A stretch of 64,000 nucleotides of DNA from Lysobacter sp. ISL-50 (GTDB lineage Bacteria > Pseudomonadota > Gammaproteobacteria > Xanthomonadales > Xanthomonadaceae), in assembly GCF_018612875.1 (NCBI RefSeq), contig NZ_JAGGRI010000003.1, forward strand, positions 19,658 through 83,657. Reading direction: 5' to 3'. The notes under the pieces are model-generated. The model was given only the letters and a program-made list of their open reading frames with translations. It had not been told where the DNA came from and ran no database searches. Made by a program: the position numbers and the translations under genes. Shown piece after piece: positions 40,237 to 62,052 of the stretch. The number at the start of each line of letters is the position of its first letter. Position 1 is the first letter of the stretch.

Positions 40237-40668
40237 TTACGGATGATTCGTGAGACCCACTAAGCGGCGCTGGTCCGACCACAGCAACGGCGGGCTGATG
40301 CCCAAGCGGTCGATCTGCACGTCGGGAATGGTGTCGTCCAGGATGCCCGCGACGATCTCAGGCGCGAGCAAGGTGAGGTTGATGATCCGACCGACATAGC
40401 TGTTGTCGGTGGACTCGGTTTCTGCGATTTCCTTCATCGAAGACATCTCGCCCCGTTCCAGCATGGAGCGCCAGCGGACACCTTTGGCGAGGGCGCGTTG
40501 CAACGAGGTCAGTTGCAGGGCCGAGGAAGCCGCATCGCTGTTCGTGGCCTGCCCGTAGCGCCTGCGGCCGGCGCGGCGGCTGATACTCAGCGGCACGATC
40601 ACGGTCAGCGCGCCATCGCTGGTTTGGACGATGCTCGCCGCCCCGGTGACATTTACCGACGCCTTCAT
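40237..40668 (-). CDS. KorB/ParB-like HTH protein accompanying the serine recombinase
   Basis: 143 aa. Residues 50-115 contain LQRALAKGVRWRSMLERGE, MKEIAETESTDNSYVGRIINLTLLAPEIVAGILD, a KorB/ParB-type helix-turn-helix common in small proteins encoded just after COG1961 recombinases. The ATG overlaps the recombinase stop (ATGA), so they are co-translated. It may bind near the attachment site or act as a directionality or copy-control factor; this is inference. Confidence 0.7.
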   Translation of the reverse strand: MKASVNVTGAASIVQTSDGALTVIVPLSISRRAGRRRYGQATNSDAASSALQLTSLQRALAKGVRWRSMLERGEMSSMKEIAETESTDNSYVGRIINLTLLAPEIVAGILDDTIPDVQIDRLGISPPLLWSDQRRLVGLTNHP

Positions 40669-42008
40669 GCGGCGATCTCCTGCCGTGCGAACTCGTCGGC
40701 CAGCGATACCACCCCGTTGGGATGGAACCGAATCTCCATCGCGTCCGGTCGAACCACGATCTTCTCCACCAGCAACCGAACCAACCGATGTTGTTCAGTC
40801 GGGAACAGCGTATCCCAGACTTGATCGAACTGGCGCAGGGCCAACACGATCCGCGCCTCGTCGGCGCCGGGCATTGCCTCGACGGCTTTGGGCACGATGG
40901 CGGCCAGCAGTTCCGGGGTGTTGAGCATCTGGCGCACGTACTTCACCACGATGCCTTCCAACTCAGCCGCTGGAAGCCGGGGGAACGTAGACGCCGAGGC
41001 CCCTTCGTGGATGTACGCGGTACTCAGGTAATAGCGGTACATGCGCCCGTTGCGTTTGGTCGTATGGCAGGGCGTCATCGCCCGCCGGTCCGGCCCCTCA
41101 ATCAGTCCCTTCAGCAAGAACGGCACCTTGGTCCTGCTCGCGTTGCCTCGGACCGTCGCATTGCTCGCCAGAATCGCTTGCACCTTGTCCCATACCGCCG
41201 TATCGATGATCGGGGGATGGCATTGAGTGAAGTACTGATCGCAATGTTTCAGCTCACCCAAGTAGGTGCGGTTGTGCAGGATCTTGTGAATCGTGCTCTT
41301 GTCGTGCCGCTGCTGGTCGCGCACACGGCCTTGGCGGGTGGTCCACGCCTTGCTCATGTAGCCCATGCCATTCGCGTCCGTTACCACGGCTTGAATGGAC
41401 TGCGTTTCGATTAGACGCTGAAAGATGAAGCGGACCTGCGCGGCTTCCAGATGGTTGACCGCCAAACGTCGGTCTTTGATGTCATAGCCCAAGGGCGGGA
41501 TGCCGTGCATCCACAATCCCTTTTTTTTGCTCGCCACCATCTTGTCTCGCACGCGATCCACGGCCAGTTCACGCTCGAACTGCGCGAACGTCATCATCAT
41601 GTTCAAGGTCATTCGACCGACCGCGTCCTTGGTGTTGAAGTTCTCCGTGATCGACACTAACGACACCTTATGCTGATCGAACAGATCGATCAGAACGGGG
41701 AAGTCACGCATCGATCGGGTCAAGCGGTCGAGTCGGTAGACCACAACCACATCGATGACGCCGTTGCGGATGTCGGCAAGCAATCGTTGGAGTACGGGCC
41801 GGTTCATGTCGCGAGCGGACACTGCAAGCTCGTCGTAGTCATCGGACACTGGAATCCAGCCATCACTGCGGCGCGCGGCAATGTAGCTCGCACCGGCATC
41901 GCGCTGGGCCTCGACGGAGTTGTACTCGCGCTCCAACCCTTCTTCGTTCGATTTTCGAGCGTAGACGGCGCACCTCAATCGTTTTACATCTGTGGTCGTT
42001 ATCGCCAT
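40665..42008 (-). CDS. Large serine recombinase, probable prophage integrase
   Basis: 447 aa from the ATG at 42,008. The resolvase domain has the nucleophile in YARKSNEEG (Ser20, Arg18), VEAQRDAG, DRLTRSMRDF with the conserved Arg, and the FAQFERELAVDR helix. A recombinase domain (GYDIKDRRLAVN, LHNRTYLGELKHCDQYF) follows. The usual zinc-ribbon Cys pair is lost (KGLIEGPDRRAMTPC), as in other members of this branch. It would catalyse site-specific integration by Ser-phosphodiester exchange. It lies in a six-gene leftward operon with overlapping starts and stops. Confidence 0.85.
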   Translation of the reverse strand: MAITTTDVKRLRCAVYARKSNEEGLEREYNSVEAQRDAGASYIAARRSDGWIPVSDDYDELAVSARDMNRPVLQRLLADIRNGVIDVVVVYRLDRLTRSMRDFPVLIDLFDQHKVSLVSITENFNTKDAVGRMTLNMMMTFAQFERELAVDRVRDKMVASKKKGLWMHGIPPLGYDIKDRRLAVNHLEAAQVRFIFQRLIETQSIQAVVTDANGMGYMSKAWTTRQGRVRDQQRHDKSTIHKILHNRTYLGELKHCDQYFTQCHPPIIDTAVWDKVQAILASNATVRGNASRTKVPFLLKGLIEGPDRRAMTPCHTTKRNGRMYRYYLSTAYIHEGASASTFPRLPAAELEGIVVKYVRQMLNTPELLAAIVPKAVEAMPGADEARIVLALRQFDQVWDTLFPTEQHRLVRLLVEKIVVRPDAMEIRFHPNGVVSLADEFARQEIAA

Positions 42009-42367
42009 TGGTCTGAACCCACCAGCATCGCGGTCCCAACACATGCATTTATAGCCACAACGTGGTCGGGGTCGAAGACCGCCAGTAACCTATGCGCATC
42101 TGCAGTGGAAGCCACTAGTTCAGACCATTCGCTGATTACGACACAGTCGAAGTGTTCTTGCTGAACTGCATGCAGTAGACGTTGCAGCTCCGGCCGGTCC
42201 CATCGATCGCAGTGGTGTCCCTGGTCGACGAACAATGTCGCAGATTGGCTGGCGCCCATTTGCGCCATCGCCTTTTCCGCTAGTTTTCGCTGAAAGACGA
42301 GTTCCTCGGTATCTTGATTCGGTGTGTAGCAGTACACCGCGAATCGCATATCTTTCATCTCACGCAT
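41999..42367 (-). CDS. Stand-alone resolvase-like N-terminal domain, catalytically degenerate (1)
   Basis: 122 aa: MRFAVYCYTPNQDTEELVFQRKL, LFVDQGHHCDRWDRPELQRLL, FDCVVISEWSELVASTADAHRLLAVF. The order of strands and helices, including DRPELQRLL, is that of the serine-resolvase N-terminal domain. The catalytic Ser is lost (YARxS becomes YCYTP) and DRLxR becomes SELVAS. There is no DNA-binding C-terminus. It overlaps the recombinase start by 10 nt. It could be an inactive partner that modulates recombinase assembly. Confidence 0.65.
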   Translation of the reverse strand: MREMKDMRFAVYCYTPNQDTEELVFQRKLAEKAMAQMGASQSATLFVDQGHHCDRWDRPELQRLLHAVQQEHFDCVVISEWSELVASTADAHRLLAVFDPDHVVAINACVGTAMLVGSDQWR

Positions 42368-42451: not shown

Positions 42452-42820
42452 TCATGCGGCGAGCCTCACGACGAGGCCTTCGCGCAAGCGGCATTCGACC
42501 ACCAGCACCCCGTGCTTGCGGAAGAAGCGGGCCAGCATCTGAACGCCGAGTTCCGAGGCGGCCAAGCGGTTCCACCCGGTGACGGCGATGCAATCAATCG
42601 TGCCGCCGGCCGCATCGGCCAGAAGTCGTTGGAACCCGGGCCGCGCGTCACGATCTACGTCCAGCCCGTCGTCGCTGTAGTGCTCAACCTCGACCTCTCC
42701 ACTCGTGCAACGGTCGATCACCTTACGAACGCCTTCGCGTTGATAGGCGATGTAGTCGGCGTCGGTCTGCGCCGACTGGCAATAGATCGCGATACGCAAC
42801 GCGTCATTGATGATGCTCAT
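42452..42820 (-). CDS. Stand-alone resolvase-like N-terminal domain, catalytically degenerate (2)
   Basis: 122 aa: RIAIYCQSAQTDADYIAYQREGV, EVEHYSDDGLDVDRDARPGFQRLLADA, IDCIAVTGWNRLAASELGVQ, FFRKHGVLVVECRL. This is again a full resolvase catalytic-domain fold without C-terminal domains. Catalytic Arg and Ser positions read Gln and Ala (YARVS becomes YCQSA), while an NRLAAS remnant of DRLSRS remains. The start overlaps the DUF2924 stop (ATGA). With the previous gene it gives two inactive resolvase paralogs before one active recombinase. Confidence 0.65.
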   Translation of the reverse strand: MSIINDALRIAIYCQSAQTDADYIAYQREGVRKVIDRCTSGEVEVEHYSDDGLDVDRDARPGFQRLLADAAGGTIDCIAVTGWNRLAASELGVQMLARFFRKHGVLVVECRLREGLVVRLAA

Positions 42821-43323
42821 GCTTTCTTTCCTTTCTCAGCGCTCGCGCGCAGTCCGAAGAACGCCGGCCCCGACCAACGGGTTCCGGTAATTTCCCTGGC
42901 GATCTTCGACAAGCTGCCGAATCGCCGACCTTCATAGTCAAATTCGCCGCCGGCACGCACGGTCACCCGATGCAGCCGTCCGTTGTATTCGCGCGTCAGC
43001 ACCGTGCCGACCACCGGGGCCGGCGCACTCGCCCGCCGGGTCACCTTGCCGGTTTCCACCAATCGCTTGAGCCGCTGGGTATTGCTGTCCAACAGCGGGT
43101 CGTGGGCGGCGCGGTACGCATCCTCTTGTAGGCGGTGTGCCAGCCGACGAATTGCATAGCGCCGATTGTTCACGCCGGGTGGTTCGCCAAACAGATCCAT
43201 CCACTTCTGCTTAAGCTCGCCCCACGACAGGTGCGGCAAGGCAGCGACCTGCGCGGCCAGCGTGCTCTGGGTATTGCCCTGATCATCCACATCAGCCTCC
43301 ACGGCTCTCCAAGGTGTTGGCAT
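42817..43323 (-). CDS. DUF2924 domain-containing protein
   Basis: 168 aa. It matches DUF2924: LPHLSWGELKQKWMDLFGEPPG, NNRRYAIRRLAHRLQEDAY, GTVLTREYNGRLHRVTVR, FDYEGRRFGSLSKIAREITG. This family is regularly encoded upstream of serine recombinases in prophages and mobile elements; its function is unknown, possibly DNA binding. The start MPTPWRAVEADV at 43,323 was chosen over an upstream codon because of the overlap with the small gene before it. Confidence 0.75.
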   Translation of the reverse strand: MPTPWRAVEADVDDQGNTQSTLAAQVAALPHLSWGELKQKWMDLFGEPPGVNNRRYAIRRLAHRLQEDAYRAAHDPLLDSNTQRLKRLVETGKVTRRASAPAPVVGTVLTREYNGRLHRVTVRAGGEFDYEGRRFGSLSKIAREITGTRWSGPAFFGLRASAEKGKKA

Positions 43324-43483
43324 ACACCCTCGGTTGGCCCGTCTTATCAAGTACAACCGCACGAGAGACCGAAAACATTGGAGACGATTGCGCTGCCTTC
43401 CGACGCATCGATTCGGCGATCAAGGAGGCGATGGCACTGACCCGGCCCTCGATCTGTCGGGTTTGTTCTTGGCTAGGAATCAT
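43292..43483 (-). CDS. Small hypothetical protein (63 aa)
   Basis: MIPSQEQTRQIEGRVSAIASLIAES, then RRKAAQSSPMFSVSRAVVLDK. Amphipathic helix at the N-terminus; no domain recognised. The start overlaps the stop of the preceding 331-aa gene by 4 nt and its end overlaps DUF2924 by 32 nt, which supports it as a real operon member. Confidence 0.5.
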   Translation of the reverse strand: MIPSQEQTRQIEGRVSAIASLIAESMRRKAAQSSPMFSVSRAVVLDKTGQPRVYANTLESRGG

Positions 43484-44956: not shown

Positions 44957-45169
44957 GTGAGCATTCCCCATCTATCCACCGAGGAACTCGCCGAGCGCTG
45001 GCGCGTTGCCGCACGTACGGTCAAGCGCTGGCGCAGCGAGGGCATCGGTCCGCGTTCGGTCAAGGTCGCGCGCAGCGTTCGCTATCGTCTGGACGACGTC
45101 GAGCGCTTCGAACGCGGTACTGATACCGCCATGGCACCGCGCGCGAGCAGCGTCGAGGCGAACGCATGA
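44957..45169 (+). CDS. Excisionase/MerR-like HTH protein
   Basis: 70 aa from a GTG at 44,957 preceded by CAGGAG. It reads SIPHLSTEELAERWRVAARTVKRWRSEGIGPRSVKVARSVRYRLDDVERFE, the HTH_17 winged-helix typical of excisionases and phage Cox-like regulators. It is the first rightward gene after the CTAGCC array, so it could bind that array and control both the recombinase operon and early genes. A frame extension to 44,897 has no similarity. Confidence 0.75.
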   Translation: MSIPHLSTEELAERWRVAARTVKRWRSEGIGPRSVKVARSVRYRLDDVERFERGTDTAMAPRASSVEANA

Positions 45170-52630: not shown

Positions 52631-52724
52631 GTGACCGAATGGTGCCGAAGAATCGTAACTCCCTACATGTGTGCGCGCGCACACACGCGTATAGACTTAC
52701 GATTCTACGGTCTCATTCGGTCAC
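52631..52724. other. Nested 94-bp palindrome after the primase gene (candidate origin)
   Basis: Outer arms of 28 bp (52,631-52,658 and 52,697-52,724) match at 24 positions, sharing GTGACCGAAT/ATTCGGTCAC and AGAATCGTAA/TTACGATTCT. In the middle lies a perfect 18-bp palindrome TGTGTGCGCGCGCACACA (52,668-52,685), almost concentric with the arms (centres 1 bp apart). The alternating purine-pyrimidine core (about 24 bp) is Z-DNA prone. It sits between the primase-helicase and the RuvC-like gene. Confidence 0.7.
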
Positions 52725-52750
52725 AAACCGCATCGACCGGAGACAAATCA

Positions 52751-53353
52751 ATGACTTACGAAACACCCACCTCGCATGCGGACGCTCGTATGCGACAGCC
52801 GAACGTCTTCGGCGCTAACGCCAAGACGACGATTCGCGACGAGTCAGCGGATCGCCACGCAGGCAATGCCAGCCCTGCGCTCGATACGGACAGCCCTGTC
52901 ATCCTCGCGCTCGACCTGGGCACGACGCTGGGCTGGTCGTTGCGCTTGTCGGGCCAAGTCATGAGCGGCAGCGAGCCGTTCAAGGTCGGTCGCTTCGAAG
53001 GCGGCGGCATGCGCTACCTGCGCTTCGTGCGCTGGCTCGATGACCTGTGGCGCTTCGCCGGCCCGCTGGCGACCGTCCATTTCGAGGAAGTGCGCCGGCA
53101 CAAGGGCGTTGACGCCGCGCATGCCTACGGCGGTTTCCTGGCGCAGCTCAGCGCGTGGTGCGAGCGCCATGCCGTGCCGTACCAGGGCGTGCCGGTGGGC
53201 ACGATCAAGAAATTCGCGACCGGCAAGGGCAACGCCAACAAGGCGGCGATGATCGAAGCGGTGAAGCACTGGGGCTATCAGCCGGCCGACGACAACGAGG
53301 CCGACGCGTTGGCGCTGCTGCACTGGGCAGTCGCCCAGGAGCCGAAGGCATGA
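52751..53353 (+). CDS. RuvC-like Holliday junction resolvase (phage type)
   Basis: 200 aa. The RNase H fold carries Asp55 in VILALDLGTTLGWS, Glu112 in VHFEEVRRH, and the C-terminal Asp cluster ADDNEADALALLHW (D180/D181/D185), the residues used for metal binding in RuvC. GTIKKFATGKGNANKAAMIEA is also typical. An ~45-residue disordered N-terminus precedes the domain. It resolves recombination or packaging intermediates. Confidence 0.8.
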   Translation: MTYETPTSHADARMRQPNVFGANAKTTIRDESADRHAGNASPALDTDSPVILALDLGTTLGWSLRLSGQVMSGSEPFKVGRFEGGGMRYLRFVRWLDDLWRFAGPLATVHFEEVRRHKGVDAAHAYGGFLAQLSAWCERHAVPYQGVPVGTIKKFATGKGNANKAAMIEAVKHWGYQPADDNEADALALLHWAVAQEPKA

Positions 53354-53781
53354 GCTTCACCTGGACCATCGATGCGGTCGCGGATCGTTTCCACGAAGCC
53401 GCGGTGACCGCGCGCCGATTGCCGCCGGCCAGGGTGCAGGGCTACGCGGCGTACTGGCCCGACATCCAACGCCAGTCCTGGGAAGGCTACGCCGACGAGC
53501 GCATCGTCCTGCGCTTTGCTGCCTCGCCTGCTGCGATTGATCGCTTCGGCGAAACCGTGCGGTGGCTGCGTTGGCTGGACGAGGAGCAGCGTCGCCTGAT
53601 CTGGCTCAGGGCACAGTACGTGCCGTGGCGCGAGGTGTGTACCCGCACCGGTCTGATCCGCAAGACCGCATGGCGACGCTGGCAGCACGCGCTGACGCTA
53701 GTGACCGTGCATCTCAACGGTCCGTTGCCGCACTTCGCGGCGGTCAAATCCGTCGCTGATCGAACGACGTTGTCCTACTGA
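53350..53781 (+). CDS. DUF6362 family phage protein
   Basis: 143 aa. FTWTIDAVADRFHEAAVTARRLPPARVQGYAAYWPDI, then RWLRWLDEEQRRLIWLRAQYVPWREVCTRTGLIRKTAWRRWQHAL, an HTH like that of DUF6362 proteins (sigma-region-4-like). It is probably a DNA-binding phage regulator of late genes or packaging. ATG overlaps the RuvC stop (ATGA). Two hairpins lie downstream. Confidence 0.7.
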   Translation: MSFTWTIDAVADRFHEAAVTARRLPPARVQGYAAYWPDIQRQSWEGYADERIVLRFAASPAAIDRFGETVRWLRWLDEEQRRLIWLRAQYVPWREVCTRTGLIRKTAWRRWQHALTLVTVHLNGPLPHFAAVKSVADRTTLSY

Positions 53782-55496: not shown

Positions 55497-56530
55497 TTCG
55501 CCCGGCTTATTACAACGAACTCGATCCCTACCTATGCCATTGGCTGCGAAACCTGATTGCTGCCGGCCTGATCCCACCGGGCGACGTCGATGACCGCGAC
55601 ATCCGATCTGTTCCCGCAGACGATCTGCGCGGCTACGGCCAATGCCACTTCTTCGCCGGGATCGGCGGCTTTGCCTACGCCTGCCGGCTCGCCGGCTGGC
55701 CCGACGAGGAACCGATCTGGACGGGCGGCTTCCCGTGCCAGCCCTTCAGCGTCGCGGGCCGACAGCGCGCGCGGGCGGATGACCGTCACCTCTGGCCGGA
55801 ATTGCATCGCCTTATTGCATCCGCGCGACCCGCTGCATTCCTGGGTGAAAATGTTGCTGGCATCGTCCCGCTGGCACTCGACGGAGTTCTCGCTGACCTG
55901 GAAGCCGAAGGCTACGCCAGCCGGGCGGTTGTTGTTCCAGCTTGCGCCGTCAACGCCCCGCACCGACGCGGCCGCGTCTGGATCGTCGGACGACGTTTGG
56001 CCGACGCCGCTGGTTCCGAGCGGCGGGCGCAGCGTGCCGCCGGGAACGACGTTGACGGGCAAGATGCCGAACGGGAAGAAACGCACCATCGAACTGGCGC
56101 ACTTGGCGAAGCGGGTCTGGCCGACCGCGACGGCGAACGACGCGGAGAAGCGCGGCGACTTTGCGGCCGAGCGGCGCAATGGCCTGCCGGGGGTGGCGAA
56201 GGCGGTGTGGAGCACGCCGCGCGCGAGCGACGGGGAGAAGGGCGGCCCCGGCCAGCGCTTCGGCAGCGGGGCGACGTTACCGCTGCCAGCGCAGGCGGTG
56301 TGGGCGACGCCGACGGCGCGGGATCACAAGGATGCGTCGAGCATTGGCAGCGCACCGGTCAATGGGATGCTTGGCAGACAAGTCGGACCCTCGCCGGTCG
56401 CCGGATACCTGAATCCGGAATTCGTCTTCTGGCTGATGGGGTATCCGCAAGAATTCCTAAGCTGCGCGCCGCCGGCAACGCGATCGTGCCGCAAGTCGCC
56501 GCCGAAATCCTCCGCGCCCTGCGCCGCTGA
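55493..56530 (+). CDS. DNA (cytosine-5) methyltransferase
   Basis: 345 aa. CHFFAGIGGFAYACRLAGW (motif I), GGFPCQPFS with catalytic Cys82 (motif IV), FLGENVAGI (motif VI), HRRGRVWIVG (motif VIII) and GNAIVPQVAAEIL (motifs IX-X). The target-recognition region is Arg/Gly/Ala-rich with repeated (L/V)(A/G)D-DG-GERR elements. The first ~50 residues (MIRPAYYNELDPYLCHWL) are phage-specific. ATG overlaps the previous stop. A second, similarly long frame covers the same DNA (see next entry). Confidence 0.85.
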   Translation: MIRPAYYNELDPYLCHWLRNLIAAGLIPPGDVDDRDIRSVPADDLRGYGQCHFFAGIGGFAYACRLAGWPDEEPIWTGGFPCQPFSVAGRQRARADDRHLWPELHRLIASARPAAFLGENVAGIVPLALDGVLADLEAEGYASRAVVVPACAVNAPHRRGRVWIVGRRLADAAGSERRAQRAAGNDVDGQDAEREETHHRTGALGEAGLADRDGERRGEARRLCGRAAQWPAGGGEGGVEHAARERRGEGRPRPALRQRGDVTAASAGGVGDADGAGSQGCVEHWQRTGQWDAWQTSRTLAGRRIPESGIRLLADGVSARIPKLRAAGNAIVPQVAAEILRALRR

Positions 56531-56597
56531 CGCCGCGCTCTCGCGCGACGCCAGCACGCCGCCGGCTCAACCCTCGTCGGCGGCCAACCCGACGTAG
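55590..56597 (+). CDS. Overlapping +1-frame protein across the C5 methyltransferase gene (possible overprinting)
   Basis: 335 aa from the ATG at 55,590, entirely inside and slightly beyond the methyltransferase gene. It contains SLTWKPKATPAGRLLFQLAPS, four W(P/S/A)T(P/A)-type blocks (DVWPTPLVP, RVWPTATANDAEKRG, AVWSTPRASDG, AVWATPTARDH) and LNPEFVFWLMGYPQEF. These are elements I know from the C-terminal half of other phage C5 methylases, yet here they are in the other frame. It may be a shadow, a relic of an ancestral frameshift, or translated. A reading-frame shift would fuse it to the methylase N-terminus. Confidence 0.35.
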   Translation: MTATSDLFPQTICAATANATSSPGSAALPTPAGSPAGPTRNRSGRAASRASPSASRADSARGRMTVTSGRNCIALLHPRDPLHSWVKMLLASSRWHSTEFSLTWKPKATPAGRLLFQLAPSTPRTDAAASGSSDDVWPTPLVPSGGRSVPPGTTLTGKMPNGKKRTIELAHLAKRVWPTATANDAEKRGDFAAERRNGLPGVAKAVWSTPRASDGEKGGPGQRFGSGATLPLPAQAVWATPTARDHKDASSIGSAPVNGMLGRQVGPSPVAGYLNPEFVFWLMGYPQEFLSCAPPATRSCRKSPPKSSAPCAADAALSRDASTPPAQPSSAANPT

Positions 56598-56890
56598 CGG
56601 GCGTACCTGTAGCCTTCGGTGCGTATATACAGCGTCGGACGGTTCGCCGACCGAATCTCCAACGCGTCGGTGTACATCCCGTGGAAGTTGTAGAGCCAAT
56701 CGCGGTCGCGCAGCAGTTGCTTGGCGAAAGCGTCGTATTCGCAGGAGGTCAGCTCCTTGACCTCCACGACTCGAGCGAACTCTGCCGGTACGTCTAGGTC
56801 CCGAAGCTCGCGTTGGACCCAGGACAAGTTCTCGGCTTTGCGTGCAAATCGGACCTTCTGGATGCGCGGCGCGATGTGGGTGGTAATCAT
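56567..56890 (-). CDS. Cassette gene A: hypothetical phage protein (107 aa)
   Basis: MITTHIAPRIQKVRFARKAE, LRDLDVPAEFARVVEVKELTSCEYDAFAKQLLRDRDWLYNF and YIRTEGYRYARYVGLAAD. Mixed alpha/beta, acidic; no recognised family. Preceded by hairpin leader A, whose ATG (56,921) is out of frame with the gene and overlaps it. The gene's own SD is ACGGAAGA. Last of the four leftward leader-bearing cassettes. Confidence 0.55.
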   Translation of the reverse strand: MITTHIAPRIQKVRFARKAENLSWVQRELRDLDVPAEFARVVEVKELTSCEYDAFAKQLLRDRDWLYNFHGMYTDALEIRSANRPTLYIRTEGYRYARYVGLAADEG

Positions 56891-56918
56891 TGGCGGTCTT
56901 CCGTGGTGGGCGTGCCGA

Positions 56919-56951
56919 CATGAACGCTTCCTTCGGCGAGGAAGCCAAGCG
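56919..56951 (-). promoter_or_regulatory. Conserved hairpin leader A
   Basis: 27-nt stem-loop (minus strand: CGCTTGGCTTCC, loop TCGCC, GAAGGAAGCG) followed by TTCATG. The SD-like GGAAG lies in the 3' strand of the stem. The leader ORF starts MSARPPRKTAND and overlaps cassette gene A out of frame. Confidence 0.7.
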
Positions 56952-57028
56952 GAACGACGGCGGTATTTGCGCTGACGCCACTTCTGTTTAGTCTTCAGAC
57001 AAGATTGGTTGTTCTCCGAACGAAGAAC

Positions 57029-57050
57029 GGCGCGCATCGCTGCGCGCCGC
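57029..57050 (-). terminator. Hairpin after cassette gene B
   Basis: Perfect 9-bp stem CGGCGCGCA/TGCGCGCCG with a 4-nt loop, 16 bp past the stop of gene B; on the minus strand it is followed by TTCTTCGTTC. Confidence 0.55.
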
Positions 57051-57065
57051 TTGGATGTGGCCGAT

Positions 57066-57338
57066 TCAAATCAGATCGAAATCGCCGCTGGTCGGATTGA
57101 ACCGAATGGCCGCGCCGGTGCGGATTGGCGTTGCGCCGCCGAAATAGAGGTGTCTGTACGCGCTTCGGTACTCCAGCGCGCGCTCGGCCTGTTCGCGACT
57201 CAGACCGCAGTCGATGAAGTAGTCGCGCAGTTCGTCGTCGGTGCTGGATTCGTTGTTGCTCAACTGGTCCTCGACCAGCGCCAGCAGTAACTCCGGCAGG
57301 GCCGAGAGCAGCGGATCGGGTTGTTTCCTTAGGCTCAT
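57066..57338 (-). CDS. Cassette gene B: hypothetical phage protein (90 aa)
   Basis: MSLRKQPDPLLSALPELLLALVEDQLSNN, DDELRDYFIDCGLSREQAERALEYR and IRTGAAIRFNPTSGDFDLI. The central helix-turn resembles a UBA-like bundle; no family recognised. The leader ATG at 57,365 is in frame and would add MASQHGDRI to the N-terminus, so either start could be used. Confidence 0.55.
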   Translation of the reverse strand: MSLRKQPDPLLSALPELLLALVEDQLSNNESSTDDELRDYFIDCGLSREQAERALEYRSAYRHLYFGGATPIRTGAAIRFNPTSGDFDLI

Positions 57339-57362
57339 GATGCGGTCTCCGTGTTGGGAGGC

Positions 57363-57395
57363 CATGAACGCTTCAAACCAAACGAAAACCAAGCG
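57363..57395 (-). promoter_or_regulatory. Conserved hairpin leader B
   Basis: 27-nt element CGCTTGGTTTTC, GTTTG, GTTTGAAGCG, then TTCATG. The outer CGCTT/AAGCG stem is kept; the inner stem is weaker than in A, C and F and GGAAG is replaced by TTGAAG. The leader ATG is in frame with gene B. Confidence 0.6.
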
Positions 57396-57468
57396 GTGTG
57401 CAGGGCATAAATCGACGTTCGTCGCAGCGTTAAGCTGTCGGACAAGAAGAGACGTTATCCTAGCGCGT

Positions 57469-57494
57469 CGCGGCCGGGCGTTTGCCCGGCCGCG
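57469..57494 (-). terminator. Hairpin after the DUF3489 gene
   Basis: Perfect 11-bp GC stem CGCGGCCGGGC/GCCCGGCCGCG with loop GTTT, 9 bp past the stop of the DUF3489 gene. No T-run, so termination may be partial. Confidence 0.5.
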
Positions 57495-57502
57495 CGCTGG
57501 GA

Positions 57503-58147
57503 TCACTCTTCCTCGTCGCTGGTGGTGGGTGCCGCCGCACGTTCGGCTTCCTTGGCCTCCTCGGTCTGGATGCGGTAGACGCGGTCTTCCTTGCCCGCCT
57601 TCTCGTTGATGACCGTGTAACCCTTCTTCTTGAGCGTGCCGGCGAAGAATCCGCGCACCGAGTGCTGCTGCCAGTCGGTCGCGGCCATGACCTCCTTGAT
57701 GGTCACGCCCTGCGGGCGCATCAGCAGGGCGACGACTTGCGCGATGCGATTCGGCTTGCGCTCTTTTGCCGGCGCGGGCGTGACTGCCTCGGCGATGACC
57801 CCGATAGCGGCGTTGGTGTCGCCAGCATCGGCATCCGCGTCGCCGTCGACGTCGTGACTAGCGTCCGATTCGTTGTCGGCATTTTCTTCGCCGCTCTCAA
57901 TGACCCCATCTCCTTCCTCCGCTCGGACGATGTCGGTCATCGGGGGCTCCAGACCCACCACCTCGTAGCCCGCATCGGTGAGCGCGTGGCCCGCGCCGTC
58001 CGTTGCGATCAGGTCGTTGAGCAGGAGCGAGCGGGTCACGGCCGTGCGCGCGCCGCCGCGCAGGTTGTCGGGGAAGTTCTCGATGCGACCGCCGGTTTCG
58101 ACGGCGAGGAGGATCAGGGCGCGCTGGTTGTCGGTGATCTGGTACAT
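57503..58147 (-). CDS. DUF3489 domain-containing protein
   Basis: 214 aa. N-terminal helical domain (MYQITDNQRALILLAVETGG, RSLLLNDLIATDGAGHALTDAGYEV), an acidic Asp/Glu/Ala linker (residues 75-120), then the DUF3489 core RIAQVVALLMRPQGVTIKEVMAATDWQQHSVRGFFAGTLKKKGYTV with YRI. DUF3489 is a winged-helix-like phage domain of unknown role. It is the only gene in the 56.5-61.5 kb array without the hairpin leader. Confidence 0.7.
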   Translation of the reverse strand: MYQITDNQRALILLAVETGGRIENFPDNLRGGARTAVTRSLLLNDLIATDGAGHALTDAGYEVVGLEPPMTDIVRAEEGDGVIESGEENADNESDASHDVDGDADADAGDTNAAIGVIAEAVTPAPAKERKPNRIAQVVALLMRPQGVTIKEVMAATDWQQHSVRGFFAGTLKKKGYTVINEKAGKEDRVYRIQTEEAKEAERAAAPTTSDEEE

Positions 58148-58181
58148 ATCTGTTTCCTAAGTGGTGAGGTGTGTTGGGTTA

Positions 58182-58207
58182 GCGCGCCCCGCCGGTGCGA
58201 GGCGCGC
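58182..58207 (-). terminator. Hairpin after cassette gene C
   Basis: GCGCGCC/GGCGCGC stem with a 12-nt loop, 8 bp past the stop of gene C. No T-run. Confidence 0.4.
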
Positions 58208-58214
58208 AGGAGGG

Positions 58215-58445
58215 TCAGCCGGCGAGCACTTCGCTGATGGCTTGGTGCGGGTTGATGTCGCCGTTCGCGATGGCGACCATCACGTCGTCGTTGAAAGTGT
58301 TCAGGACGAGGTAGGCCCGCCGTTCCATTTCGTGCTGTGCGGCCAAGTGCCAGTCGTTGATGCTGAGCAGTTGCGTCAGTGCCGCGCGGTTATACTTCTT
58401 CATTCCGTGGATGTAGTCTTTAAATGCTGCGGTTTGGTCGTTCAT
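58215..58445 (-). CDS. Cassette gene C: hypothetical phage protein (76 aa)
   Basis: MNDQTAAFKDYIHGMKKYNRAALTQLLSIND, AAQHEMERRAYLVLNTFNDDVMVAIANGDINPHQAI. All-helical, no domain. The leader ATG (58,481) is in frame and would add MSPHQRRPRRPT. The SD before the gene ATG is CACGGAGG. Confidence 0.55.
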   Translation of the reverse strand: MNDQTAAFKDYIHGMKKYNRAALTQLLSINDWHLAAQHEMERRAYLVLNTFNDDVMVAIANGDINPHQAISEVLAG

Positions 58446-58478
58446 GGTTGGCCTCCGTGGCCGTCGTTGGTGTGGGGA

Positions 58479-58511
58479 CATGAACGCTTCCTTCCACAAC
58501 GAAGCCAAGCG
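58479..58511 (-). promoter_or_regulatory. Conserved hairpin leader C with upstream palindrome
   Basis: CGCTTGGCTTC, GTTGTG, GAAGGAAGCG, then TTCATG: a CGCTT-GG-CTTC/GAAG-G-AAGCG stem. A 14-bp palindromic box AGAACGCTCGTTCT (58,525-58,538 on the minus strand) lies 13 nt upstream; the same box precedes leader E. Confidence 0.7.
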
Positions 58512-58579
58512 AATAGCGCGACTAAGAACGAGCGTTCTCAGTTACAGACAGGCGTCAGACAGCTACGTTGCGCAGCCAC

Positions 58580-58604
58580 AAAAAACGCCCCTTGCGGGGC
58601 GTTG
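58580..58604 (-). terminator. Rho-independent terminator after cassette gene D
   Basis: On the minus strand AACGCCCC-GCAA-GGGGCGTT is followed by TTTT (six Ts in total counting the stem end). A canonical intrinsic terminator 17 bp past the stop. Confidence 0.85.
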
Positions 58605-58620
58605 TCGGGTGTTGTGGGGA

Positions 58621-59010
58621 TCAGCCGATTCGGCGCTGTCGGATCGCGGTAGGAATCAGTAGATCGCAGGCCCTTGCCTCCTGCCACCGGTACGCGGTTA
58701 GGGCGACCTCCGGGATGGGCGCGGTAACGACCGTCTCCGCACGCGGATCGATGGACCAGTCTTCTGCTTCGCCTTCGCCGAGCCATACGCTGCCGAGCAT
58801 CGTATGCCGCTCGGTCGGCAGGGCGTCCGCTGCGCTGCCGCCAGCGGCACGCAGTGCGGCGGCGTAGCCGGCGAGGTAGGCGGCGGTTAGCGCGCTGTCG
58901 AGGTTGCTGGCACACACGCTGTGGAAGTCCAGGCCGTCGCTACCTCGCATATCCAGCGTTGATACGTGCAGGTGTTGTTGCGCGATGGTGGTGAGCGTCT
59001 TGCGGTTCAT
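58621..59010 (-). CDS. Cassette gene D: DUF6900-like phage protein (129 aa)
   Basis: MNRKTLTTIAQQHLHVSTLDMRGSDGLDFHSVCASNLDSALTAAYLAGYAAAL matches the DUF6900 pattern (IA-EHL-TLE-R-SD-LDFH, AL-AAY-AG). The remainder (VWLGEGEAEDWSIDP, PEVALTAYRWQEARAC) is unrecognised. The leader ORF (MRRPNAQPRRLP) ends in TGA overlapping this ATG (CCATGA), so translation is coupled. Confidence 0.65.
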   Translation of the reverse strand: MNRKTLTTIAQQHLHVSTLDMRGSDGLDFHSVCASNLDSALTAAYLAGYAAALRAAGGSAADALPTERHTMLGSVWLGEGEAEDWSIDPRAETVVTAPIPEVALTAYRWQEARACDLLIPTAIRQRRIG

Positions 59011-59042
59011 GGCAGCCTCCGTGGCTGTGCGTTGGGTCGACG

Positions 59043-59075
59043 CATGAACGCTTCCGCTGGGTGAGAAGCCAAGCC
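59043..59075 (-). promoter_or_regulatory. Conserved hairpin leader D with 12-codon uORF
   Basis: GGCTTGGCTTCT, CACCC, AGCGGAAGCG, then TTCATG. The leader ORF of 12 codons ends in a stop that overlaps the gene D start. GGAAG precedes the leader ATG by 5 nt. Confidence 0.7.
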
Positions 59076-59191
59076 GACTGCTCGTCATATCCTGACTTTC
59101 GCAGACCAAAGACAACGGGCGTACAGCTTCCGGCGGCCAGTTGTCCAAGGCCTAAACGAGTTAAGAGAACGCTCGTTCTTCCTGCAGATTC

Positions 59192-59224
59192 CGCTTGGCT
59201 TGTGAGCGAAAGGAAGCGTTCATG
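59192..59224 (+). promoter_or_regulatory. Conserved hairpin leader E with 12-codon uORF
   Basis: CGCTTGGCTT, GTGAGCG, AAAGGAAGCG, then TTCATG. The leader ORF MSSPQRRGTRRA ends with TAG (59,258-59,260) two nt before the gene E ATG. The box AGAACGCTCGTTCT lies at 59,166-59,179, 12 nt upstream of the hairpin, as before leader C. Confidence 0.75.
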
Positions 59225-59262
59225 TCCTCGCCGCAACGACGCGGTACACGGAGAGCGTAGCC

Positions 59263-59805
59263 ATGCCGCAGAACAATACGAATTTGTTTAGGGCCGCAAC
59301 AAGAGCAATCGGCCCGTGTATCGATGCAATTAAAACGACGGAAGATTGGAGAAGACGGTTTACCGAAACAGAGCGCGAGCAGGTGAAATGGATGCTGGAC
59401 ACCTGCTGCGACTTGTTCGAAACGCTCCATGCTTGGATGAGATGGGACTATCGGCTGAACGACCGTGCCGCCCTGACCTACCACTTGGATCGTAGGCTTT
59501 GCCTGAAGCCCGGTGCGGACACGCGCCATCTGCCGCCTTGCCGCGCCGCCGTCTTCGCGGCAGGCGTGGAGGCAATGTGCGCCGCCAGAGGCCGTCTACG
59601 GGCGGCGGGTCGCGGCTTGGAACGCCCACTGAGTCATCGCGAGAACATTGCAGCGGACCAGATGGTGCGAGCGGTCGCCGAGATGTTTGACGTAATCGAT
59701 GGTTGCGGCGGATACGTCGAAATGGCAGAGGAAATGAGAGGGATCATCGGAGAGGGTGGCGTCCCGTTAAGCCCCCACGTCACAGAGCCGCAAGCGGAAT
59801 GGTAA
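59263..59805 (+). CDS. Cassette gene E: hypothetical phage protein (180 aa)
   Basis: MPQNNTNLFRAATRAIGPCIDAIKTTEDWRRRF, VKWMLDTCCDLFETLHAWMRWDYRLND, HREN-IAADQMVRAVAEMFDVIDGCGG. All helical, no recognised domain. First rightward cassette; SD CACGGAGAG precedes the ATG at 59,263. Confidence 0.6.
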   Translation: MPQNNTNLFRAATRAIGPCIDAIKTTEDWRRRFTETEREQVKWMLDTCCDLFETLHAWMRWDYRLNDRAALTYHLDRRLCLKPGADTRHLPPCRAAVFAAGVEAMCAARGRLRAAGRGLERPLSHRENIAADQMVRAVAEMFDVIDGCGGYVEMAEEMRGIIGEGGVPLSPHVTEPQAEW

Positions 59806-59858
59806 CGACTACAGCGCGATCGCATGGCTTAGTGCAGCGCTGACGCGAAGAGCGCAGA

Positions 59859-59895
59859 CCCCAGCGTCCACCGGGCGTTGGGGTGTTCCTTCTTC
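59859..59895 (+). terminator. Cassette-type hairpin after gene E
   Basis: CCCCAGCGTCC-ACC-GGGCGTTGGGG followed by TGTTCCTTCTTCCC. The same design recurs after genes F and G, and as a variant after gene H. Confidence 0.7.
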
Positions 59896-59964
59896 CCACG
59901 GCACCCCGCAAGCGGCCTTGTTCCTGTCCGGTAGGTGTCTCGCGATATGAAATGCGGCGAACAC

Positions 59965-59997
59965 CGCTTTGCTTCCTTGTTGGAAGAAGCGTTCATG
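59965..59997 (+). promoter_or_regulatory. Conserved hairpin leader F
   Basis: CGCTTTGCTTCC, TTGTT, GGAAGAAGCG, then TTCATG: the best pairing of all copies, with CTTCC opposite GGAAG, covering the SD. The leader reads MSSPQRRGELGEQRW and overlaps gene F out of frame; the first 8 codons match leader E. Confidence 0.75.
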
Positions 59998-60035
59998 TCC
60001 TCGCCGCAACGACGCGGCGAGCTTGGAGAACAACG

Positions 60036-60284
60036 ATGGCGAATATGTCTTACTGCCGATTTCATAACACCTTGCACGCGCTGAGGGACTGCGATCACGT
60101 CTTGGGAGACATGGTCGACGGCGATCCTGAGCGACTCAGCGCCGAGGAACTTGAGGCGACGAAGGAGTTGGCTACCACTTGCTTGAACATCGTTCAGATG
60201 CTGGCCGAACGTGGCTCCTTGGCATTCGAACCCGACATGGACCTCGCGAGGGTAGTCGAGGAATTGAACGACTCGGCGACGTAA
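60036..60284 (+). CDS. Cassette gene F: phage protein (82 aa), paralog of gene G
   Basis: MANMSYCRFHNTLHALRDCDHVLGDMVD, LSAEELEATKELATTCLNIVQMLAE. The MSYCRFxNT-L-DC start belongs to a widespread small phage family of unknown function. Aligns along its length with gene G (FH-T, AEELEATK/AEDLDAAK, C--VV-ML). SD GGAGAAC. Confidence 0.65.
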   Translation: MANMSYCRFHNTLHALRDCDHVLGDMVDGDPERLSAEELEATKELATTCLNIVQMLAERGSLAFEPDMDLARVVEELNDSAT

Positions 60285-60299
60285 TGGTTTGAGAGCGCC

Positions 60300-60332
60300 T
60301 ACCCCAGCGCCCGACGGGCGCTGGGGTATTCC
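60300..60332 (+). terminator. Cassette-type hairpin after gene F
   Basis: ACCCCAGCGCCC-GAC-GGGCGCTGGGGT, a perfect 12-bp stem, followed by ATTCCCTCTTC. Confidence 0.7.
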
Positions 60333-60359
60333 CTCTTCTGCGAGAATTTCGCGCACGAT

Positions 60360-60392
60360 CCGTTGCAATTGTCGTTGAAGGAAGCGTTCATG
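60360..60392 (+). promoter_or_regulatory. Conserved hairpin leader G (weakest copy)
   Basis: The 3' side GTTGAAGGAAGCG-TTCATG is kept, but the 5' side reads CCGTTGCAATT, so the outer stem is poor. The leader starts MDWPQRRGDSRN and overlaps gene G out of frame. Confidence 0.55.
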
Positions 60393-60432
60393 GACTGGCC
60401 GCAACGACGCGGCGATTCAAGGAATATTTACC

Positions 60433-60687
60433 GTGAGCGAGTATTACCGCGATTTCCACAGCACTGCGAAGTACCTTCAGCGATACGAAGTATGCATCCA
60501 CGATCTGCTGCAATTTGACGACACCGAGCAAATGGCCGCCGAAGATTTGGACGCGGCGAAGCGAATGGCGCGCAGTTGCTGGGCGGTGGTGATGATGCTG
60601 TGCGAGAAGGCTCAGATCGAGCTGCCCAAGGAGCCGGACTTTGATCCCATCCTCGATGAGGTGAATGAGGTCGCGGCCAACCGATAA
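60433..60687 (+). CDS. Cassette gene G: phage protein (84 aa), paralog of gene F
   Basis: GTG start. VSEYYRDFHSTAKYLQRYEVCIHDLLQFDD, MAAEDLDAAKRMARSCWAVVMMLCEK, DFDPILDEVNEVAANR. Diverged copy of gene F. The SD is weak (AAGGAATATTTACC), suggesting that it depends on the leader for translation. Confidence 0.6.
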   Translation: MSEYYRDFHSTAKYLQRYEVCIHDLLQFDDTEQMAAEDLDAAKRMARSCWAVVMMLCEKAQIELPKEPDFDPILDEVNEVAANR

Positions 60688-60699
60688 GAACGGAGTGTG

Positions 60700-60735
60700 A
60701 AAACCCCAGCGCCCACCGGGCGTTGGGGTTTTCCC
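60700..60735 (+). terminator. Cassette-type hairpin after gene G
   Basis: AAAACCCCAGCGCCC-ACC-GGGCGTTGGGGTTTT followed by CCCTCTTCC. The flanking A and T runs allow termination in either direction. Confidence 0.75.
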
Positions 60736-60795
60736 TCTTCCTTTCTTCAGCGCACCTGTCTGTCAGCTGTCGGCGGTCAAGCAGGCCGGAGGTTC

Positions 60796-60828
60796 CGCTT
60801 GCGATGCTCGCGCAGCGAAGCGTTCATG
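60796..60828 (+). promoter_or_regulatory. Conserved hairpin leader H
   Basis: CGCTTGCGATGC, TCGCG, CAGCGAAGCG, then TTCATG. A CGCTTGCG/CGAAGCG-type stem. The leader reads MTSPHQRGLPRK and overlaps gene H out of frame. Confidence 0.65.
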
Positions 60829-60865
60829 ACGTCGCCGCACCAACGCGGCCTACCAAGGAAGATAC

Positions 60866-61399
60866 ATGAACGACCAATACCTTATCGCCGACGCGGAATT
60901 GCGCAGCTTCGGCGACTATCTGGAACGGATACTGCTGTCGAGTTACCCGGTGCCCGAGGAATCGAACGAAGTCCTGAGTCTGTTCGCTTGCTACGGACTT
61001 GCCAGTACGCTGGCCGAGCGTACCGATACCTTCCGCACCATGCGGTTATCCGCTGACCTGATTGAACGGCTGGTGGATGCTTGCCGGAAGGAACTGGCTC
61101 CGCTGGAGCGCGCGATTGATCAGGTCAAGGGCTGGGCCGGTAAGCGACTGGTACCAAGCGAGATTGGCGAGAACGAGATGACGCTGCGCTGGCTGTACGC
61201 CACCATTGAGCGTTACTTCGATGGGCTGGAACCGGAGTTTTCGGCGCTGCCAGTGCATCAGCTCAATCGGGTGTTGCGCCATGCTCGATTGATGCAAGTT
61301 TGGGATGTCGCGGATCACACGTATCCGCGCGTGCTACGCAACGCCATCAGCTATCTGGAGAACGCGATCCTCGCGGCGATCTGCGCGCCCCGTAACTAA
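60866..61399 (+). CDS. Cassette gene H: hypothetical phage protein (177 aa)
   Basis: MNDQYLIADAELRSFGDYLERILLSSYPVPEESNEVLSLFACYGLA, LIERLVDACRKELAPLERAIDQVKGW, RVLRNAISYLENAILAAI. All helical. No recognised domain. Its ATG is preceded by AAGGAAG. Last gene before the packaging block. Confidence 0.6.
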   Translation: MNDQYLIADAELRSFGDYLERILLSSYPVPEESNEVLSLFACYGLASTLAERTDTFRTMRLSADLIERLVDACRKELAPLERAIDQVKGWAGKRLVPSEIGENEMTLRWLYATIERYFDGLEPEFSALPVHQLNRVLRHARLMQVWDVADHTYPRVLRNAISYLENAILAAICAPRN

Positions 61400-61419
61400 C
61401 CGCTGCCGCGCGAGAGCGC

Positions 61420-61455
61420 ACACCCTTGCTCCCGGTGGGAGCAGGGGTGTTCCCT
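61420..61455 (+). terminator. Cassette-type hairpin after gene H
   Basis: ACACCCTTGCTCCC-GGT-GGGAGCAGGGGTGT followed by TCCCTCTTCCCTTT. Sequence differs from E-G but stem length and tail are kept. Confidence 0.7.
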
Positions 61456-61521
61456 CTTCCCTTTACCCTATCTGCGCCGATGGCCGGCGGTCGCGGAGGC
61501 TGACCCGAATCGAATCCTGAC

Positions 61522-62052
61522 GTGGGAATCTCCATCCGTGCTTACGGCCGCCATCGTGGCGTGTCCGACACCGCCGTGCGCAAGGCCATCGCCGCCGGCC
61601 GCATCACCGCCGAGACGGACGGCACGATCAATGCCGCGCGCGCTGACGCGGAATGGGCCGCTAGTACGCGGCCACCGGACGGGACGCAGCTTGCGCGCCC
61701 CTCGCGCGCGCGGTCCAGCGACGATGGTGCCGCCATGGTGTCTACGGGCGCGCCCAGCGGCAGCAACACCTACGCGCAGGCGCGTACCGCTAATGAAGTT
61801 TTAAAGGCGCAGCACCACAAGCTGCGCATCGCTCAGTTGAAGGGCGAGTTGATCGATCGCTCGCAGGTCATGGAACAGATCTTCGCGCTGGCGCGCACTG
61901 AGCGCGATGCTTGGTTGAACTGGCCGGCGCGCATCAGTTCGATGCTCGCCGCTGAGTTGGGTATTGATCCACACACGATGCATGTCGCGCTGGAGCGCGA
62001 GGTGCGCCAACACCTGTCTGAGTTGGGCGAGTTTTCCGCTCGTCTGGAGTAA
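61522..62052 (+). CDS. Terminase small subunit (Nu1-like DNA packaging protein)
   Basis: 176 aa from a GTG. N-terminal winged HTH: MGISIRAYGRHRGVSDTAVRKAIAAGRITAETDG, as in lambda Nu1-type proteins that bind cos. Central coiled helix (VLKAQHHKLRIAQLKGELIDRSQVMEQIFALARTERDAWL) and a C-terminal helix that would contact the large subunit. The terminase large subunit starts 3 nt after its stop. It follows the last cassette. Confidence 0.75.
   Translation: MGISIRAYGRHRGVSDTAVRKAIAAGRITAETDGTINAARADAEWAASTRPPDGTQLARPSRARSSDDGAAMVSTGAPSGSNTYAQARTANEVLKAQHHKLRIAQLKGELIDRSQVMEQIFALARTERDAWLNWPARISSMLAAELGIDPHTMHVALEREVRQHLSELGEFSARLE

What the first reader, a model, noticed from the sequence alone, without database searches (positions are those of the whole stretch)
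56567..61460. Array of eight small phage genes sharing a 27-nt SD-masking stem-loop and leader ORF
Seen in sequence: eight copies (four per strand: 56,919-56,951; 57,363-57,395; 58,479-58,511; 59,043-59,075; 59,192-59,224; 59,965-59,997; 60,360-60,392; 60,796-60,828) of a block of fixed length. It is (C/G)GCTT, about 17 variable nt, AAGCG, then TTCATG. Loop sequences differ but pairing is mostly kept (CTTC with GAAG in A, C and F), a sign of selection on structure. GGAAG in the 3' strand would be the SD for the leader ATG, so folding would hide it. Each leader ATG opens a short Arg/Pro-rich ORF (MSSPQRRG in E and F, MDWPQRRG in G, MTSPHQRG in H). In D and E it ends at the gene start; in B and C it is in frame; in A, F, G and H it overlaps. 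Inference: a shared post-transcriptional switch (temperature, sRNA or protein) that co-regulates otherwise unrelated accessory phage genes. I know of no described element like this.
Basis: partly seen in the sequence, partly recalled or inferred. Interest (0 to 1): 0.85.

Follow-up and report, generated by a model that had tools for sequence, protein, structure and literature searches.

The report
Shared phage promoter-like DNA element array
Eight small genes of a Lysobacter prophage, like genes in many related phages, sit behind the same two-part DNA signal, which looks more like a phage-specific transcription switch than an RNA hairpin and which usually accompanies two uncharacterised proteins that may read it.

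Summary
The eight blocks are real: the 12-mer GAAGCGTTCATG occurs 21 times in this genome, its reversed control 0 times. The RNA reading fails: variable stem positions do not covary in 90 Lysobacter-array copies, the eight copies fold differently, and the 'leader ATG' is not conserved (113 of 133; 24 of 76). What is conserved is a bipartite signal, CTTG-N18-GCGTTCAT, at one spacing (111 exact matches at gap 18, 0-2 at each of 20 other gaps), mostly 28-64 nt before genes with their own SD, often just after a terminator. It has promoter geometry without a sigma70 -10. Long contigs found through the DUF6362 protein carry it too (22 of 24), often in variant form. In 369 genomes, all 8 with three or more copies have DUF6362 (9 have it), but DUF3489 associates equally well. 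Best reading: a phage-lineage promoter for accessory genes, read by a phage factor, perhaps DUF6362, whose weak structural matches are about half sigma factors (24 of 50 listed). Promoter activity and reader are inferred, not shown. Closest known: mycobacteriophage SAS/ESAS.

The parts
56919..56951 (-). Element A (CTTG-N18-GCGTTCAT), upstream of gene 56567-56890
   Evidence: exact match
57363..57395 (-). Element B, upstream of gene 57066-57338
58479..58511 (-). Element C, upstream of gene 58215-58445
59043..59075 (-). Element D, upstream of DUF6900 gene 58621-59010
59192..59224 (+). Element E, upstream of gene 59263-59805
59965..59997 (+). Element F (CTTT instead of CTTG), upstream of gene 60036-60284
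60360..60392 (+). Element G (GTTG instead of CTTG), upstream of gene 60433-60687 (GTG start)
60796..60828 (+). Element H, upstream of gene 60866-61399
56567..56890 (-). small gene A, 107 aa; related 'FSRKP...EYDAF' proteins follow the element in L017, L036, L083, L258 (likeness judged by eye)
   Evidence: (phrog_21303 E 6.8e-06)
57066..57338 (-). small gene B, 90 aa
57503..58147 (-). DUF3489 protein (a relative hits winged-HTH models), second candidate reader; no element directly upstream here, lies downstream of gene C
   Evidence: Pfam PF11994 E 1.3e-22
58215..58445 (-). small gene C, 76 aa
58621..59010 (-). small gene D, DUF6900
   Evidence: PF21841 E 8.2e-16
59263..59805 (+). small gene E, 180 aa
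60036..60284 (+). small gene F, 82 aa, 'SYCRF' family
   Evidence: phrog_8760 E 1.7e-11
60433..60687 (+). small gene G, 84 aa
60866..61399 (+). small gene H, 177 aa
58584..58603 (-). intrinsic-terminator-like hairpin after gene D, upstream of element C
59858..59884 (+). terminator-like hairpin after gene E
   Evidence: (family D2)
60292..60336 (+). terminator-like hairpin after gene F; its arm ends 25 nt before the CTTG position of element G
   Evidence: D2, I16; not among the nine sites; sequence
60699..60733 (+). terminator-like hairpin after gene G
61410..61460 (+). terminator-like hairpin after gene H
   Evidence: D2; shorter stems
53350..53781 (+). DUF6362 protein, 143 aa; predicted helical HTH, candidate reader of the element
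   Evidence: PF19889 E 3.4e-33; models; Foldseek

Best explanation
Each block is a fixed-geometry bipartite DNA element, CTTG-N18-GCGTTCAT (CTTG usually followed by GCTT), that acts as a phage-lineage-specific promoter or activator-dependent promoter core. CTTG lies where a -35 would be and GCGTTCAT where a -10 would be; transcription would start a few nt beyond TTCATG and give a T-poor 5' leader carrying the gene's real SD. Each accessory gene (or short operon) thus has its own switchable promoter after the previous gene's terminator. DUF6362, a small HTH protein with sigma-region-4-like helices, is the first candidate; DUF3489 is the second. Shown: the element, its spacing, its position before genes, its association with DUF6362/DUF3489 phages, and the lack of a conserved ATG or covarying inner stem. 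Inferred: promoter activity, start site, reader identity and timing.
For: Fixed spacing: 111 exact CTTG-N18-GCGTTCAT in 95 DUF6362-fetched loci against 0-2 at each of 20 other gaps; 105 against 0-1 after dropping 7 contigs that the motif search had already brought in. In own-genus loci fetched by the 11- or 12-mer alone, CTTG is at -19 for 81 of 97 distinct 11-mers and never at -18 or -20. Position: in 76 of 76 non-redundant copies a gene start with SD lies 40-100 nt after CTTG. Terminators: one within 100 nt upstream for 53 of 133 elements against 9% of random positions; element G leaves only 25 nt for any other promoter. No sigma70-like promoter in 56500-61550 (0 found, 1.1 expected). T falls from 22-24% upstream to 8-10% right after the element in 90 Lysobacter copies. 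Association: DUF6362 in 22 of 25 motif-bearing virus records that I chose; in 369 genomes all 8 with 3 or more copies are among the 9 with DUF6362 (Fisher p 1e-15). Test from the protein side: 20-kb regions around DUF6362 in seven genomes without the exact Lysobacter motif hold 2 or more copies of the element, mostly in a variant form, at the same spacing (8 of 8 regions, L355-L362; 7 with 2-4 exact copies, L356 with 1 exact and 2 one-mismatch copies). Of 80 viral loci found by protein alone (7 motif-fetched contigs dropped) 39 have an exact element, and of the 24 that are at least 14 kb long 22 do.
Against: No transcript data. The -10-like half (GCGTTCAT) resembles no sigma70 -10. No Foldseek match of DUF6362 has E <= 0.001, and its sequence profile hits sigma region 4 only weakly (RpoS E 0.14; gone). 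G420 has DUF6362 but no motif (3.9-kb contig). RcOceanus, a Rhodobacter phage with a remote DUF6362-like protein, has no element at up to 1 mismatch, nor have the regions fetched around DUF6362-like genes of Eleftheria and Shinella plasmids an obvious one. 41 of the 80 protein-found viral loci show no exact element, many of them short contigs; the 54 of 87 at up to one mismatch include three loci (L367, L386, L394) whose only matches look like chance matches in coding sequence. 80 of 133 elements have no terminator within 100 nt by my crude finder. The leader-frame bias is unexplained.
Confidence: 0.68

Rival explanations
1. One reading: an RNA stem-loop hides the SD of a conserved leader ORF; temperature, sRNA or protein opens it and the leader controls translation of the gene.
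For: Inverted arms CGCTT/AAGCG and CTTC/GAAG in several copies; 33-34-nt blocks fold slightly better than shuffles on average (mean z -0.53, n 133); leader ATG in frame with the gene in 48 of 97.
Against: No covariation at varying inner pairs in 90 copies, one of six inner pairs above shuffles in 56 others; the 5' side of the outer pairs varies while the 3' side stays; the eight copies fold into different structures; the reverse complement folds as well (mean z -0.76); ATG absent in 20 of 133 array copies and 52 of 76 copies from DUF6362-fetched loci; the genes carry their own SD.
Confidence: 0.07
2. Operator rather than promoter: the element binds a phage repressor or activator (the GAA-GCG-TTC half is partly palindromic) while an ordinary weak promoter nearby starts transcription.
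For: Partial dyad in the core of the GAAGCG form; fixed spacing also fits a bound dimer plus RNA polymerase; DUF3489 relatives hit winged-HTH models and DUF6362 is predicted as an HTH-type fold.
Against: Little room between terminator and element for another promoter in G; no sigma70-like promoter found in the region; asymmetric site pointing towards the gene in 76 of 76 copies.
Confidence: 0.15
3. RNA-level antitermination or processing site at the start of each transcript, with two promoters in the roughly 118-bp centre driving the two arms through the terminators.
For: Divergent layout of the Lysobacter arrays; terminators after genes.
Against: In 18 DUF6362 loci examined the exact copies lie on one strand, and many copies are solitary before a single gene such as DUF2924; no covarying inner stem.
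Confidence: 0.06
4. Recombination boundary or cassette site (integron attC-like or module-boundary sequence) with no role in expression.
For: The same gene families recur behind the element in different phages; repeats could help swap genes.
Against: Upstream of and oriented towards a gene start, mostly at 28-64 nt and in 76 of 76 copies; attC core sequences (recalled) were not seen; no copy after the last gene of either arm in the window at up to 1 mismatch.
Confidence: 0.04

Closest known systems
Mycobacteriophage cluster K Start-Associated Sequences and Extended SAS (Pope et al. 2011, PMC3203893; Adephagia paper 2024, PMC11373665; passages read)
   Same: Short conserved repeats before many small non-structural genes of different families; sites almost all in one orientation; the authors see little support for an RNA hairpin in the ESAS repeats, and the later paper finds putative SigA-like promoters in ESAS.
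   Different: Different sequence and phages. SAS lies 3-9 bp from the start codon in the RBS position; this element lies mostly 28-64 nt upstream, has its own fixed bipartite spacing, no sigma-A-like hexamers and recurs across many proteobacterial hosts.
Activator- or sigma-dependent phage promoters (T4 middle/late, P2-type Ogr promoters; recalled)
   Same: Repeated phage-specific promoter read with help of a phage protein, controlling a gene class.
   Different: Sequence, spacing and candidate reader differ; not tested experimentally.
Sigma-region-4-like phage late regulators RinA/ArpU (recalled; only a search listing seen)
   Same: Small HTH protein encoded upstream of terminase.
   Different: DUF6362 is a separate Pfam family, weak structural similarity only; in the window its candidate sites lie before accessory genes and none before the terminase genes.
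RNA thermometers / SD-masking leaders (recalled)
   Different: No conserved paired structure, no conserved start codon; Rfam gave only three sub-threshold matches in 56000-62000.

Membership tests
SD-masking RNA leader / thermometer | paired structure kept by compensatory change | tested here: not met
   shuffled pairing equals observed at varying inner pairs in 90 copies; one of six inner pairs exceeds it in 56 others; outer pairs not testable there because the 3' arm was fixed by selection
SD-masking RNA leader / thermometer | masked SD followed by a conserved start codon | tested here: not met
   ATG in 113 of 133 and 24 of 76
Known RNA family | Rfam covariance match at gathering score | tested here: not met
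   three sub-threshold matches, none overlapping an element
Mycobacteriophage SAS | 13-bp motif with AGGAG within 3-9 bp of the start codon | tested here: not met
   element lies mostly 28-64 nt upstream with different sequence
Mycobacteriophage ESAS | imperfect inverted repeats around SigA-like -35/-10 hexamers | tested here: not met
   no sigma70-like pair found in 56500-61550
sigma70-type promoter | TATAAT-like -10 with A at position 2 | tested here: not met
   17 bp after TTGnnn the hexamer is GTTCAT, nearly invariant
Bipartite promoter in general | fixed or narrow spacing of two blocks upstream of a gene | tested here: met
Bipartite promoter in general | transcription start just downstream | not testable with these tools
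   no RNA data available here
Sigma region 4 (DUF6362) | significant sequence or fold match | tested here: inconclusive
   Sigma70_r4_2 E 0.001 for one of six members, below cut-off; Foldseek hits to region 4 with TM(target) about 0.7 but E above 1
Integron attC | site downstream of each cassette, same strand order | tested here: not met
   sites upstream of genes, array divergent

The most novel reading that the evidence does not exclude
DUF6362 is a minimal, phage-encoded promoter-specificity factor (sigma-region-4-like, joining or replacing host sigma) that defines a regulon in a large group of proteobacterial temperate phages: it switches on dispersed one-gene promoters CTTG-N18-GCGTTCAT before accessory genes, DUF3489, DUF2924/serine recombinase and excisionase-like genes. 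It would thereby link replication-stage expression to host-takeover, defence and integration genes.
Probability: 0.35. Interest if true: 0.78.

Novelty: new variant of a known kind. Interest (0 to 1): 0.62.

Why it matters
It would give a sequence signature for a phage regulon in many uncultured and prophage genomes, suggest a function for a domain that no held paper mentions (DUF6362; 0 papers), and flag many unknown small genes as one co-regulated accessory class, a practical way to look for new counter-defence or takeover genes. It also corrects a plausible RNA-switch reading.

Tried and rejected
RNA hairpin with SD masking: rejected on inner-stem covariation, folding and ATG loss. Leader peptide: loops of the downstream CCGC/GCGG hairpin vary in length (6 nt in 36, 5 in 6, 9 in 1 of 43 copies), which shifts the frame; not pursued further, and the frame bias stays open. 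Recent duplication: rejected, the element recurs in other hosts with different flanks. Known phage records: blastn of the array against 50,697 phage records gave six records, the best being Acidithiobacillus phage AcaML1, 76% over 104 bases inside the DUF3489 gene, not at an element; two single-element queries gave only matches with E 0.8 or higher. DUF6362 as the sole associated protein: rejected as a claim after DUF3489 gave the same association. Late-operon control: no element upstream of the terminase or in about 38 kb beyond the window at up to 1 mismatch. Comparisons with sigma32, ECF and other sigma consensus sequences were from memory only. A viral scan with a spacing error of mine found nothing and was repeated correctly. 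Literature searches without a paper on this element: (listings only).
Full report
Observation. Nineteen matches to GAAGCGTTCATG at up to two mismatches were found in the window against 6.3 expected, and none of 100 shuffles reached 19. The genome holds 21 exact copies and none of the reversed pattern. The array lies in a prophage between a replication operon (D5 primase, DUF6362, N6/N4 and C5 methylases; Pfam; the RuvC-like label of 52631-53353 and the AlpA-like label of 44957-45169 are mine from the sequence) and what I take to be the terminase genes from 61522 on (no Pfam family over cut-off for the small subunit; named by position and likeness). The genus is Lysobacter: the lengths of contigs G003:C12 and G017:C32, of genomes given as same genus, equal those of Lysobacter sp. 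Root690 and L. antibioticus 13-6 contigs.

Spread. Of 60 related genomes searched, own included, the 12-mer occurs in 39, in many as single scattered copies; clustered arrays are visible in G003, G004, G005, G006, G008, G009, G017, G018 and G019. Lysobacter arrays mostly show one strand on the left and the other on the right. Viral contigs and named genomes of other proteobacteria carry the element before DUF2924 (L043 by Pfam; L061, L195, L213, L222 by likeness), DUF3489 (L017, L021, L065), DUF6900 (L047) and an HTH_17 gene that I call excisionase-like (L291).

What is conserved. In 133 non-redundant elements of 36 chosen array loci the columns CTTG (-19 to -16), T at -12 and GCGTTCAT (+3 to +10) are nearly invariant, with GCTT after CTTG and AA before the core as weaker features (that finder itself demanded the two blocks with at most one mismatch). 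Loci fetched by the 11- or 12-mer alone have CTTG at -19 in 81 of 97, and never at -18 or -20. In 95 loci fetched through the DUF6362 protein, exact CTTG-Ng-GCGTTCAT occurs 111 times at g = 18 and at most twice at each of the other 20 gaps between 8 and 28. Seven of these contigs had already been found by the motif; without them the counts are 105 and at most one. The real gene start, with its own SD, mostly follows 28-64 nt after the first base of the 12-mer (which includes chance matches) and within 40-100 nt of CTTG in 76 of 76. Positions downstream of the core are T-poor: 8-10% against 22-24% upstream in 90 Lysobacter copies, 13-16% against 24% in 56 others.

Why not an RNA switch. Varying inner stem pairs show no more pairing than after shuffling partners in 90 Lysobacter-array copies (z -0.9 to 0.8). 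In 56 filtered other copies one inner pair reaches z 4.3 and one -2.1, and the two outermost pairs hold in only 50% and 36%. Both sets were chosen for an exact CTTG and an exact 3' arm, so the outer pairs say only that the 5' side varies. The eight window blocks fold into different shapes, z between -2.77 and +1.07. Over 133 elements the mean z is -0.53, and -0.76 for the reverse complement, as expected of partial dyad symmetry in DNA. The leader from +9 on has mean z -0.80, which fits the short hairpins noted after the core. The ATG is replaced by ATA, ATC or ATT in 20 of 133 and by ATC or ATA in 52 of 76 copies from DUF6362-fetched loci. Against this, in 103 Lysobacter copies the leader frame has fewer early stops than the other frames, and in 48 of 97 the leader ATG is in frame with the gene. 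I take this as confounded by relatedness and by in-frame run-on, but it is not explained away.

Why a promoter. The window scan found no sigma70-like promoter between 56500 and 61550, and nine terminator-like hairpins against 4.2 expected. A family of four terminator-like repeats follows genes E, F, G and H. Element G begins about 25 nt after the terminator arm, which leaves no room for another promoter. Across 133 elements a terminator lies within 100 nt upstream in 53, against 9% of random positions in the same loci. TTGnnn-N17-GTTCAT has the geometry of a sigma-type promoter, but the -10 is not TATAAT-like, so a special reader is needed. This step is inference.

Candidate reader. DUF6362 (window 53350-53781) was found in 22 of 25 virus records that I chose from those with a motif match; the three misses are records of 5.4, 23.4 and 31.3 kb. 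In an even sample of 369 genomes of the class (400 asked), DUF6362 is over its cut-off in 9 and three or more copies of CTTGGCTT-N14-GCGTTCAT occur in 8, all among those 9; six other genomes have a single copy (p 1e-15). The ninth, G420, has DUF6362 on a 3.9-kb contig without the motif. The exact Lysobacter form was present only in G000 of these. Reading about 20 kb around DUF6362 in seven of the others (eight regions, two from G208) showed two or more copies of the element, mostly in a variant form, CTTGGCTTC...GAACAGCGCGTTCAT, at the same spacing in all eight; L356 has one exact and two one-mismatch copies, the rest 2-4 exact ones. A protein-only search gave 229 viral loci, of which 80 were returned, and a second gave 7. 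At up to one mismatch 54 of 87 hold a match, mean 1.30 per locus against 0.19 at ten wrong spacings; three of the 54 have only matches that look like coding chance. Without the seven contigs that the motif had already found, 39 of 80 have an exact element, and 22 of the 24 that are 14 kb or longer; the other two have a one-mismatch copy. The queries themselves came from element-bearing contigs. The DUF6362 models (block means of pLDDT 82-94 over residues 61-120) have no Foldseek match with E <= 0.001; of the 50 matches listed for the second model 24 are sigma factors or their region 4, for example SigD4 and SigR region 4 (TM by target 0.72 each), all with E above 1. One of six family members scanned hits Sigma70_r4_2 at E 0.001, below its cut-off. 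Rhodobacter phages carry remote homologues annotated as HTH proteins, and RcOceanus shows no element at up to one mismatch.

Comparison and verdict. The nearest described case is the SAS/ESAS system of cluster K mycobacteriophages, in which repeats before many small genes were first linked to translation and the extended ones later found to hold putative promoters (passages of PMC3203893 and PMC11373665). This element differs in sequence, position, spacing and host range. I found no held paper on DUF6362, and none on this element in the listings; that covers only open-licence PMC papers and those search words. The finding is a real and widespread phage regulatory element whose first interpretation was of the wrong kind; its promoter nature is likely, its reader open.

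Noticed in passing
window 40665-42044 (-), 42817-43362 (-): Serine recombinase beside a DUF2924-like protein (Pfam hit for the recombinase; the window DUF2924 assignment is mine by eye, its Pfam scans failed). In other phages DUF2924 genes themselves follow the element.
   Followed up: partly
G000: C1, C33 around 73 kb and 181 kb: This genome carries three DUF6362 genes and four DUF3489 genes, which suggests at least three related prophages.
   Followed up: no
window 58525-58538 and 59166-59179: Palindrome AGAACGNNCGTTCT upstream of elements C and E, the only two matches in the window at up to 1 mismatch (0.10 expected); a possible extra operator.
   Followed up: partly
elements of L368-L445 relative to DUF6362: In the 18 DUF6362 loci listed all exact copies lie on the opposite strand to DUF6362, about 3-7 kb downstream, whereas Lysobacter arrays are divergent.
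   Followed up: partly
window leaders +12 to +45: Short hairpins such as CCGC-GCGG (43 of 103 copies) or GGCC-GGC (23 of 103) directly after the element, possibly 5' mRNA stabilisers.
   Followed up: partly
L457 4391-4454 (-): Agarilytica rhodophyticola plasmid pSU2 carries DUF6362, recombinase and DUF2924 genes like a phage-plasmid of this lineage; a one-mismatch element precedes its DUF2924 gene.
   Followed up: no
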